NCBI GenBank assembly: GCA_002773985.1
Contig: PEZW01000014.1
Coordinates: forward strand, 6,477-47,958
DNA: 41,482 bases
DNA from: Candidatus Berkelbacteria bacterium CG10_big_fil_rev_8_21_14_0_10_43_13
Lineage (GTDB): Bacteria > Patescibacteriota > UBA1384 > XYA2-FULL-43-10 > 1-14-0-10-43-13
Reading direction: 5' to 3'
In this document: positions 10,465-25,387 of the stretch, in pieces
How positions within the stretch are numbered: the stretch's first letter is position 1
How the letters are laid out: every line of letters begins with the position of its first letter
Notes under the pieces: generated by a model
What the model was told of the DNA's origin: nothing
Database searches by the model: none
The model's input: only the letters and a program-made list of their open reading frames with translations
Made by a program: the position numbers and the translations under genes

Positions 10465-10541
10465 GGGGCTGTAGCTCAGTTGGTTAGAGCGCTTCGTTGA
10501 CATCGAAGAGGTCTGCAGTTCGAGTCTGCCCAGCCCCACCA
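10465..10541 (+). tRNA. tRNA-Val(GAC)
   Basis: Acceptor GGGGCTG pairs with CAGCCCC; the D-arm is AGCTCAGTTGGTTAGAGC; anticodon stem CTTCG/CGAAG carries loop TTGACAT, giving anticodon GAC; the T-arm is CTGCAGTTCGAGTCTGCCC-like. Discriminator A and CCA are encoded. A trailer hairpin begins within the CCA. Confidence 0.93.
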
Positions 10542-11430: not shown

Positions 11431-11505
11431 GGCCGCTTAGCTCAGCGGTAGAGCGCTGCATTCACATTGCAGATGCCACTGGTTCAAATCCAGTAGCGGC
11501 CACCA
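11431..11505 (+). tRNA. tRNA-Val(CAC)
   Basis: Acceptor GGCCGCT pairs perfectly with AGCGGCC; D-arm AGCTCAGCGGTAGAGC; anticodon stem CTGCA/TGCAG with loop TTCACAT gives anticodon CAC; T-arm ACTGG-TTCAAAT-CCAGT; ACCA is encoded. A damaged copy of its 5' half begins exactly 640 bases downstream. Confidence 0.92.
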
Positions 11506-12070: not shown

Positions 12071-12145
12071 GGCCGCTTAGCTCAGCGGTAGAGCACTGCA
12101 TTCACATTGCAGGGGTCATTGGTTCGAGTCCAGTAACGCCCACCA
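12071..12145 (+). pseudogene. Chimeric or degenerate tRNA-Val(CAC) copy
   Basis: The first 43 bases match the tRNA-Val(CAC) at 11431 except for one base, including the anticodon arm. The 3' half differs (GGGTCATTGGTTCGAGTCCAG) and its 3' acceptor strand AACGCCC mispairs at two positions with GGCCGCT, but would pair perfectly with GGGCGTT. It therefore looks like a join of the 5' half of tRNA-Val with the 3' half of another tRNA. ACCA is retained. Confidence 0.75.
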
Positions 12146-23060: not shown

Positions 23061-24335
23061 CTAGGCAATCGCGTTTTCCGGCAATGCTCTGATCATGGCC
23101 ACATCCTCGGCTATTTGGGCACTGAGTTTCTTGGCGTCATCAAATTTGATAATCTCGCGCAAATATAGATTTATTTCAAAGTTGACTATTTTCAAGTTTT
23201 CTGCCGACACCGAATCAAGCAGGTAGACTTCTAAGGACGGTTTTTTGTTTTCGTAAGTTGGCACCGGACCGTAATGAATTGCCGCCGGCATTGCTTTGCC
23301 GCCAATCCAGACACGGCCGGCATATATGCCATGCTTAAAATTAAATTTCCTGGGGATGACTAGGTTTAGGGTTGGAAACCCAATCTTCTCGCCGCGACCG
23401 AAGCCGGTGGTGACTTTTGATATATATATGATGGCTTGATTTAGAAGTGAAAGCCGGTATACTGCAAAAAGCAAAACGATGCCAGACAAATATTGGCTCC
23501 AGGACAGAACATTGTGATAATAGAAAACATCAACCAAAATCCCTGTCAGTGGAAATATTAGTTCGAGAAAGGTAGCTACTCGAACCTCTGTGTGCTGAAG
23601 ACCACGGTAATAAATCCAGATTGCCACCATACCGGTCGAAAGAGCGATGACCATAAAACGTGTCATTTCCGAGGTGGTGATTTGCCCCAGAACTGCAGAA
23701 TTTCCTAAAATATAAACTGTAAGTAATGCTAGCGGTACGGTTAAAACAAACCGAAGACCAGTCGCCAAAGTGTTGGAAATTTTCAAAACTGTCAGCCTCG
23801 ACAACGCGGTAGATGACCCCCAGAAAAAGGCTGCACCAACTGCCAGAAAGGCGGCAATGATAGTACCTTCACCGGTAGCAAGATTGACTTGGCCGTTCTT
23901 AAAAGTGACAAAAAAGGCGGCGACAAAAGCAAGCACTGCCCAGCCGAGATAACGACGATTGATTTTTTCCTTAAGTAATATCACTGCGGCAGCGATGGCA
24001 AAAATCGGTTGGAGTTTCTGGAGTAAAAAAACGACGGAAATCGAAATATAATTGACTTTTACTAGAGCAGCCGTAAACATCAGGGTGCCGATGACTCCGC
24101 TAAAAAGAGCGATCAGTAAAAGAATGAACCATTCTTTTTTTGTCACTTTTTCTCTCTGTAAGGCGATGATGGTCGCTGGCGCGATAATAATCGCGCCAAT
24201 CAGATGTTCATAAAAAACAATGACGCTTGGTGCTAAGGAATATAAACTTCGACGCAAGACACCATCTATACCCCAAAGAAGTGCTGCAACAACAATATAC
24301 ATCGGTCCATATGTTTTCAGCGTTTGTTTTTTCAT
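23061..24335 (-). CDS. EamA transporter fused to riboflavin kinase
   Basis: A 424-residue fusion. Residues 10-300 form two EamA (DMT-superfamily) repeats of about five helices each, including ALLWGIDGVLRRSLYSLAP and AAFFWGSSTALSRLTVLK. Residues 305-424 are a complete riboflavin kinase beta-barrel: GFGRGEKIGFPTLNL (Gly-rich flap and PTxN motif), HGIYAGRVWIGGKAMPAAIH, the catalytic glutamate in SLEVYLLD, and LREIIKFDDAKKLSAQIAED. No FAD synthetase part is present, unlike RibF. The EamA family includes the riboflavin importer RibN, so import followed by immediate phosphorylation to FMN is the natural hypothesis. With ten helices both termini would face the cytoplasm, where ATP is. No FMN riboswitch was found upstream. 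Confidence 0.92.
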   Translation of the reverse strand: MKKQTLKTYGPMYIVVAALLWGIDGVLRRSLYSLAPSVIVFYEHLIGAIIIAPATIIALQREKVTKKEWFILLLIALFSGVIGTLMFTAALVKVNYISISVVFLLQKLQPIFAIAAAVILLKEKINRRYLGWAVLAFVAAFFVTFKNGQVNLATGEGTIIAAFLAVGAAFFWGSSTALSRLTVLKISNTLATGLRFVLTVPLALLTVYILGNSAVLGQITTSEMTRFMVIALSTGMVAIWIYYRGLQHTEVRVATFLELIFPLTGILVDVFYYHNVLSWSQYLSGIVLLFAVYRLSLLNQAIIYISKVTTGFGRGEKIGFPTLNLVIPRKFNFKHGIYAGRVWIGGKAMPAAIHYGPVPTYENKKPSLEVYLLDSVSAENLKIVNFEINLYLREIIKFDDAKKLSAQIAEDVAMIRALPENAIA

Positions 24336-24402
24336 ACTTTTTCATAAATTATTTTTTAAACAACACAAACTTATCACAATTGCTCACAAATTCGCAATAG
24401 CA

Positions 24403-24445
24403 CATATTCAAAAAGATTGCCATGGAAGCAATCTTTTTGAATATG
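24403..24445. terminator. Bidirectional terminator-like palindrome
   Basis: CATATTCAAAAAGATTGC pairs over 18 bases with GCAATCTTTTTGAATATG around loop CATGGAA. GATTGC/GCAATC followed by T5 makes a proper terminator stem in both directions, mainly for the YtxH gene on the minus strand. Confidence 0.75.
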
Positions 24446-24471
24446 CGTTAAAACTCAGATTACCAATCTAA

Positions 24472-24789
24472 TTATTTTAGGGCTTTTTTCACCTCGGCAA
24501 AATTATTTTTCAACTTCGCCAGAATATCCTTGGCATCAGCGGGGGTAATCTTTTTCTCGACTTCATACACCTTCACAATTTTGTCAACGACCTTTTCGTA
24601 GGTTTCCTTAGTCACCTTGCCCGCCTTGTCCAGCTCCTTGGCAATCTTGTTCTTCATTTCATGCATGTATTTTTTCAGATCTTCTTGAGTTTCTTTGCCT
24701 GATTTCGGAGCAAAGAGCAAGCCAGCGATCACACCGGCCAGAGCACCGACGGATGCGCCGATTAGCAGTTCTTTTTCTTTTTTGTCCAT
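24472..24789 (-). CDS. YtxH-domain membrane-anchored protein
   Basis: 105 residues with a Gly-rich N-terminal membrane helix (LLIGASVGALAGVIAGLLFAP), then KSGKETQEDLKKYM, the defining pattern of YtxH (general stress-type) proteins, followed by a charged amphipathic coiled region. AAAGGAAA precedes the ATG. The function of YtxH proteins is not established. A lone gene with its own terminator. Confidence 0.88.
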   Translation of the reverse strand: MDKKEKELLIGASVGALAGVIAGLLFAPKSGKETQEDLKKYMHEMKNKIAKELDKAGKVTKETYEKVVDKIVKVYEVEKKITPADAKDILAKLKNNFAEVKKALK

Positions 24790-24883
24790 AAATTTCCTTT
24801 CACATTATTTTTACAGAAGTTAATTCTATCACAAATGACTTTTTTAGCTATTACGGATAGGCCGCCTCCAACACAATAATTGA

Positions 24884-25387
24884 TTAACCGTTTAATGATT
24901 TCCTAATATTACTAGCCAATTCTTTTAGTTGACTAAAATCGGCCATCGGACCGCTACCGGAAGAAATCCAGCCTTCATATTTGTCAAACCAAAATTTTTT
25001 GTCACTCAAGGTTTGGCGCCATTCTCCTCGTTTGAAATATTCTGTCCCGTGCATCGGAAAAAGTTTGAAGTGGGCATGATTGATTCCGGTGCCCTCCGCC
25101 AAAATACCGACACGTCCGACATCGTCGAAATAGTTTTCTAAAATGTCAGCGGCTTTCTTGGTCGCTATGATGAATTGTGCCAAAACTTCATCCGGCATTT
25201 TCAGCACATCACTGTCATAATGCTTTTTAGGGATGACGCAGGAAAAACCTTTTGTATTCGGATCGATGGACAAGAAGGCCATAAAGTTGTCATCAGACCA
25301 AAAGACTAAATCGGCTGAAATTTTGCCCGCGGCAATTTCACAAAAAATACACTGATCACCATCTGTTTTTAAGCTGTGTTTTATCAT
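24884..25387 (-). CDS. HIT-family hydrolase/transferase, variant triad
   Basis: About 167 residues with the histidine-triad fold: CIFCEIAAGKISADLVFWSDDNFMAFLSIDPNTKGFSCVIPKKHY typifies the family, including the CxxC zinc pair. The triad reads NHAHFKLFP, so the first two histidines, including the nucleophilic one, are kept but the third is lysine. Relatives hydrolyse nucleotide phosphoramidates or dinucleoside polyphosphates. The internal ATG at 25387 has GGAG six bases upstream, while the ATG four codons earlier has no spacing to a ribosome site, so 25387 is chosen. Confidence 0.88.
   Translation of the reverse strand: MIKHSLKTDGDQCIFCEIAAGKISADLVFWSDDNFMAFLSIDPNTKGFSCVIPKKHYDSDVLKMPDEVLAQFIIATKKAADILENYFDDVGRVGILAEGTGINHAHFKLFPMHGTEYFKRGEWRQTLSDKKFWFDKYEGWISSGSGPMADFSQLKELASNIRKSLNG

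What the first reader, a model, noticed from the sequence alone, without database searches (positions are those of the whole stretch)
23061..24335. EamA (RibN-type) transporter fused to riboflavin kinase: uptake coupled to trapping as FMN
One open frame joins a ten-helix EamA transporter to a complete riboflavin kinase domain with GFGRGEKIGFPTLNL and catalytic SLEVYLLD. RibN riboflavin importers belong to the EamA family and riboflavin kinase is normally the second half of RibF; a direct link would let an auxotrophic CPR cell import the vitamin and phosphorylate it at the membrane exit. The predicted topology puts the kinase in the cytoplasm. I am not aware of a described fusion of this kind, and the FAD synthetase half is absent.
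Basis: partly seen in the sequence, partly recalled or inferred. Interest (0 to 1): 0.92.

Follow-up and report, generated by a model that had tools for sequence, protein, structure and literature searches.

The report
Riboflavin importer fused to riboflavin kinase
In a tiny Patescibacteria (CPR) genome that lacks the vitamin-B2 synthesis gene tested for, one protein joins a vitamin-B2 importer of the known ImpX kind to the enzyme that phosphorylates the vitamin, and about 30 relatives keep the same two genes side by side, so uptake and trapping of the vitamin are probably coupled.

Summary
ORF 23061-24335 (-) encodes 424 aa: a ten-helix EamA transporter (PF00892, 101.7 bits) run directly into a complete riboflavin kinase (PF01687, 82.9 bits). 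A second species of the genus has the same fusion (426 aa, 80% identical, purifying selection), so it is not an assembly error.

The function is well supported, with one correction: the transporter belongs with ImpX of Fusobacterium, not demonstrably with RibN. It matches an FMN-riboswitch-controlled Fusobacterium protein identified here as ImpX (34%, E 8e-33), whose F. nucleatum ortholog is reported to rescue a riboflavin-auxotrophic E. coli. In Patescibacteria this subfamily sits next to (here, fused to) a riboflavin kinase in 28 of 39 carrier genomes and below an FMN riboswitch in 13. Carriers mostly lack lumazine synthase (3/41 have it, against 29/39 of kinase genomes without the transporter).

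Most likely mechanism: riboflavin import with trapping as FMN. Direct hand-off is not shown. The missing FAD synthetase is the phylum rule, not special here. I found no description of the fusion in the papers searched. A convergent case exists: in family f44 the kinase is fused to an ABC-transporter ATPase. Verdict: new variant of a known kind.

The parts
23061..24335 (-). Whole fusion gene, 424 aa (EamA/ImpX-type transporter + riboflavin kinase)
   Evidence: same fusion in G001
23448..24335 (-). Transporter half, residues 1-296, ten membrane helices, ImpX-type EamA/DMT
   Evidence: PF00892; model; fold match to LicB 7paf and 5i20; 34% identity to Fusobacterium ImpX
23427..23447 (-). Junction, residues 297-303 (LLNQAII): almost no linker between helix 10 and the first kinase strand
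   Evidence: substitutions in this stretch follow the same pattern as the domains
23085..23426 (-). Riboflavin kinase half, residues 304-417; PTLN Thr322/Asn324 and Glu369 of SLEVYLLD kept
   Evidence: PF01687; PDB sequence matches; conserved columns; model and fold matches
24396..24452 (.). Hairpin-forming inverted repeat between the upstream YtxH-like gene and the fusion, terminator-like; leaves about 60 nt of leader, too short for an FMN riboswitch
   Evidence: sequence read; no Rfam match above gathering score

Best explanation
A riboflavin salvage protein. The N-terminal ten-helix EamA half is an ImpX-type riboflavin importer. The C-terminal half is an ATP-dependent riboflavin kinase hanging from helix 10 into the cytoplasm, which turns imported riboflavin into FMN that cannot leave through the transporter. 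Phosphorylation keeps the inward gradient steep and so pulls uptake (metabolic trapping). Shown here: both domains, intact motifs, conservation, and linkage of this transporter subfamily to the kinase and to FMN riboswitches. Inferred: the transport substrate of this protein, the direction, the activity of the kinase, and the trapping. Not shown: direct hand-off of riboflavin.
For: Domains and folds. Fusion in two species under purifying selection (pS 0.79, pN 0.13). Neighbourhood: 30 of 109 kinase loci from 12 families have this EamA subfamily as neighbour or fused; named genomes show EamA>RFK overlapping (L006), RFK>EamA (L008) and convergent (L005, L007). Co-occurrence: 37 of 39 transporter genomes have the kinase against 70 of 341 others, Fisher 1e-20. 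FMN riboswitch: 13 of 18 found in 380 genomes lie directly upstream of this EamA, also L003. Replacement of synthesis: RibH in 3/41 transporter genomes against 29/39 kinase-only genomes, Fisher 4e-10. Homology to the Fusobacterium protein identified as ImpX: 279 bits to the family profile against at most 72 for other EamA proteins; riboswitch of 118 bits upstream; published ImpX primer site downstream; transport by F. nucleatum ImpX reported in PMC4418817. Tree: the window protein is nested with kinase-neighbour proteins, sister to three riboswitch-controlled ones.
Against: No experiment. No FMN riboswitch at this gene itself. Genome counts are not phylogenetically independent. The genome is 91% complete, so absent genes could be missing sequence. 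34% identity to ImpX does not fix the substrate. The own genome has two MurB genes (normally FAD-dependent) but no recognised FAD synthetase, so the onward route from FMN is unexplained.
Confidence: 0.86

Rival explanations
1. Fusion without channelling: the two activities are joined only to fix stoichiometry or co-expression; riboflavin diffuses freely to the kinase. This is a variant of the best explanation that differs only in mechanism, so its confidence overlaps with it.
For: In most relatives the pair are separate genes in several orders, including convergent ones, so a physical link is not required; the kinase was also fused to unrelated partners such as 5-formyltetrahydrofolate cyclo-ligase, IPP isomerase and an O-antigen-ligase-like protein.
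Against: The linker is nearly absent, which places the kinase at the cytoplasmic side; transporter-kinase fusion arose at least twice with different transporters.
Confidence: 0.6
2. The transporter half exports a flavin (for example for extracellular electron transfer), and the kinase makes the exported FMN.
For: EamA/DMT proteins include exporters (general knowledge; no tool result).
Against: Carriers mostly lack lumazine synthase (3/41) and so would have no riboflavin to export; FMN riboswitches normally repress supply genes when FMN is plentiful, which fits import; F. nucleatum ImpX supports import (PMC4418817).
Confidence: 0.04
3. The transporter imports another substrate (another vitamin or an amino acid) and the kinase link is accidental.
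For: EamA is a broad family; the closest solved fold is the choline importer LicB.
Against: Flavin links in 34 of 39 genomes (28 kinase neighbours or fusions plus 6 riboswitch-only) and mutual exclusion with RibH.
Confidence: 0.06
4. Assembly or frameshift artefact that joins two adjacent genes.
For: Adjacent genes overlap by one base in a relative, L006.
Against: Same fusion in an independent genome with about 20% protein divergence, no stop inside, purifying selection across the junction.
Confidence: 0.01

Closest known systems
ImpX riboflavin transporter (Fusobacterium nucleatum; FMN-riboswitch regulated; PMC4418817)
   Same: EamA fold, 34% identity over 97% of the transporter half; the Fusobacterium protein falls inside the patescibacterial clade
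   Different: ImpX is a single-domain protein, reported only in bacteria that can make riboflavin (PMC4418817); here it carries a kinase domain, and its relatives sit mostly in genomes without lumazine synthase
RibN riboflavin transporter (alpha- and gammaproteobacteria)
   Different: Kinship within EamA not tested here; RibN orthologs are reported only from Proteobacteria (PMC4418817)
RibF, bifunctional riboflavin kinase/FAD synthetase
   Same: The C-terminal kinase module is homologous and keeps its motifs
   Different: The N-terminal FAD synthetase module (PF06574) is absent; a transporter takes its place
RibXYZ riboflavin ABC transporter
   Same: Family f44 has an FMN riboswitch, ABC permease, substrate-binding-type protein and an ATPase fused to riboflavin kinase
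   Different: Unrelated transporter; a convergent solution, not a relative of the transporter half

Membership tests
Riboflavin kinase (PF01687) | Profile match over the whole domain above the curated cut-off | tested here: met
   82.9 bits, profile 7-122/124
Riboflavin kinase (PF01687) | P-T-x-N motif and conserved Glu | tested here: met
   PTLN (Thr322, Asn324) and Glu369; Thr and Asn invariant, Glu at least 90% conserved in 60 sequences; aligned with S. pombe and human enzymes
Riboflavin kinase (PF01687) | Fold of solved riboflavin kinases | tested here: met
Riboflavin kinase (PF01687) | Catalytic activity | not testable with these tools
   needs an assay
RibF bifunctional FAD synthetase | N-terminal PF06574 domain | tested here: not met
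   not in the protein nor in the genome
EamA/DMT superfamily | Two EamA repeats, ten helices | tested here: met
ImpX riboflavin transporters | Sequence kinship with Fusobacterium ImpX above other EamA proteins | tested here: met
   279 bits for the Fusobacterium protein against at most 72 bits for other EamA proteins; nested in the tree (quick method)
ImpX riboflavin transporters | That the Fusobacterium protein used is ImpX | tested here: met
   FMN riboswitch upstream; published reverse primer site just downstream with 3 mismatches, none expected by chance; forward primer not found
ImpX riboflavin transporters | FMN riboswitch upstream | tested here: not met
   absent at the window gene, present at 13 phylum relatives and at L003; a regulatory feature, not a defining one of the protein
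ImpX riboflavin transporters | Riboflavin uptake | not testable with these tools
   needs complementation
RibN riboflavin transporters | Sequence kinship with RibN of Rhizobium or Vibrio | not tested

The most novel reading that the evidence does not exclude
A one-chain group-translocation device for a vitamin: riboflavin leaving the transporter is passed straight to the kinase active site at the end of helix 10, so that transport and phosphorylation form one vectorial reaction with no free cytosolic riboflavin.
Probability: 0.2. Interest if true: 0.8.

Novelty: new variant of a known kind. Interest (0 to 1): 0.63.

Why it matters
It gives a function to a transporter subfamily found in about a tenth of the sampled genomes of this phylum and shows how these reduced, mostly uncultured bacteria get flavins: import (ImpX-type or ABC) takes the place of biosynthesis, and the kinase is repeatedly tied to the riboflavin source (ImpX-type-kinase, ABC-ATPase-kinase, riboflavin synthase-kinase fusions). 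The fusion is a compact single-gene system in which coupling of transport to trapping can be tested directly in a riboflavin-auxotrophic laboratory strain. It also extends ImpX, reported only from riboflavin-making bacteria, to genomes without lumazine synthase.

Tried and rejected
FMN riboswitch at the window gene: none at gathering score or at E up to 1 in 24200-25000. FAD synthetase in the own genome: no PF06574 match and no RibL-like match; left open. RibN kinship: no sequence to test. In the first fusion model the kinase half had low confidence, put down to its thin alignment; it was remodelled alone. Domain placement relative to the transporter mouth could not be judged from the tool output. 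Literature searches for a described fusion, and for riboflavin transporters in Patescibacteria, found nothing relevant.

Full report
Observation. The ORF at 23061-24335 (-) is real, 424 aa, and carries EamA (two repeats) followed by a full Flavokinase domain. The model has ten membrane helices, residues 10-298, with the first kinase strand at residue 302, so the linker is nearly absent. Lys/Arg counts in the loops are 3, 4, 4, 2, 2, 2 on the predicted inner side and 1, 1, 1, 1, 0 on the outer side, so both ends, and hence the kinase, are predicted cytoplasmic. Fold searches give DMT transporters (LicB 7paf; 5i20) for the first part and riboflavin kinases for the second. The kinase motifs are intact.

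Not an artefact. The window lies in an 838-kb genome, 91% complete. The one other genome of the genus, G001, encodes the same fusion, 426 aa. Between the two species synonymous differences are saturated (pS 0.79) while non-synonymous ones are few (pN 0.13), in both domains; across the junction pN is 0.175. The other two genomes of the family have no flavokinase.

What relatives show. Among 380 genomes drawn from the phylum, 107 have a flavokinase. I fetched the surroundings. Of 109 kinase loci, 30, from 12 families, have an EamA protein of one subfamily next to or fused to the kinase: 25 pairs in the order kinase-transporter, 4 pairs transporter-kinase at 3 loci, 2 fusions. Loci found by similarity in named genomes add overlapping transporter-kinase (Roizmanbacteria, L006), kinase-transporter (L008) and convergent pairs (L005, L007). 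Conserved pairing with changing orientation speaks for a functional link rather than inherited gene order. A profile of the subfamily finds 39 of 380 genomes, with a wide score gap to other EamA proteins. Of these 39, 37 have the kinase, against 70 of 341 other genomes (Fisher 1e-20). The own genome has only two EamA proteins, so neighbourhood by chance is very unlikely.

Riboswitches. The FMN riboswitch occurs in 17 of the 380 genomes, 18 copies. By position 13 lie directly upstream of this EamA subfamily, 2 upstream of an ABC operon (G073, G092) and 3 upstream of riboflavin synthesis genes (G016, G146, second copy of G173). A further one, in G030, lies between the kinase and the EamA gene. 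The window gene has none; a hairpin at 24396-24452 leaves only about 60 nt of leader.

Import replaces synthesis. Lumazine synthase (PF00885) is present in 3 of 41 genomes with the transporter and in 29 of 39 kinase genomes without it (Fisher 4e-10). Genomes are not independent, but the swap is also seen inside families: f109 (G220 against G264), f62 (G278 against G098), f86 (G305 and G320 against G148), f41 (most against G146), f35 (G171 against G064), and mostly f66 (against G273; G173 has both). Family f33 shows no difference. This argues for import and against export.

Which transporter. In the plasmid collection the best match of the transporter half is a Fusobacterium vincentii protein, 34% over 97%, E 8e-33 (the 2.1-Mb record looks like a chromosome). 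It has a 118-bit FMN riboswitch just upstream, and the reverse primer used to clone F. nucleatum impX in PMC4418817 matches just downstream of the ORF with 3 mismatches, none expected by chance; the forward primer was not found. I therefore take it as ImpX, whose FMN riboswitch is described (PMC11014391) and whose transport activity was reported by complementation of an E. coli ribB mutant (PMC4418817). It scores 279 bits against the patescibacterial profile, other EamA proteins at most 72, and a quick tree places it inside the patescibacterial clade. In the careful tree the window protein sits in a supported group of eight whose members all neighbour or carry the kinase, and whose sister group is three riboswitch-controlled proteins (sister grouping 82/91). 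The label RibN-type is therefore better replaced by ImpX-type; RibN itself could not be compared.

FAD. Only one sampled genome (G062) has a strong FAD synthetase match; the other PF06574 hits are near or below the cut-off. So a kinase without this module is normal in the phylum. In families f66 and f98 a small cytidylyltransferase-like protein (GVFDLLHPGH ... ALGYDQ) lies near the kinase and resembles, from memory, archaeal RibL; it could be the FAD synthetase there. No match to it was found in the own genome, which nevertheless has two MurB genes.

Parallel fusions. In family f44 the kinase is fused to an ABC-transporter ATPase, next to a permease and a substrate-binding-type protein; two of the three operons show an FMN riboswitch. 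In family f35 it is fused to riboflavin synthase. The kinase has thus been joined to the riboflavin source at least three times. It has also been joined to unrelated partners, so fusion alone does not prove channelling.

Conclusion. Best reading: an ImpX-type riboflavin importer fused to riboflavin kinase, importing and trapping the vitamin as FMN (0.86). Activity, direction and hand-off remain untested. I found no description of this fusion in the library searched.

Noticed in passing
L084:3127-4305(+), L102:234-1517(-), L103:3096-4367(+): Family f44: ABC-transporter ATPase fused to riboflavin kinase, in an operon with a permease and a substrate-binding-type protein, with an FMN riboswitch in two of three genomes; looks like a RibXYZ system with built-in kinase.
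   Followed up: partly
L069:3259-4374(+), L139:3388-4374(+): Riboflavin synthase fused to riboflavin kinase in family f35.
   Followed up: partly
L090:4748-5161(-), L085:5539-5949(-), L089, L096, L097, L101, L077: Cytidylyltransferase-like protein (GVFDLLHPGH...ALGYDQ) near the riboflavin kinase in families f66 and f98; candidate RibL-type FAD synthetase of Patescibacteria, also found in many other kinase-bearing genomes.
   Followed up: partly
L079:3481-4335(-), L083:3946-4827(+), L111:3514-4413(-), L091:2707-4347(+): Riboflavin kinase fused to other partners: 5-formyltetrahydrofolate cyclo-ligase (L083; L079 looks the same), IPP isomerase, an O-antigen-ligase-like membrane protein.
   Followed up: no
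G000, G002, G003: MurB (normally FAD-dependent) is present although no PF06574 FAD synthetase is found; G002 and G003 also lack riboflavin kinase. The flavin source of these genomes is unexplained.
   Followed up: partly
window 11431-11505 and 12071-12145: Two tRNA-Val genes with the same anticodon CAC, plus a third tRNA-Val (GAC) at 10465-10541, close together.
   Followed up: no
L275 (NZ_CP084075.1): The 2.1-Mb Fusobacterium vincentii record labelled as a plasmid looks like a chromosome.
   Followed up: no
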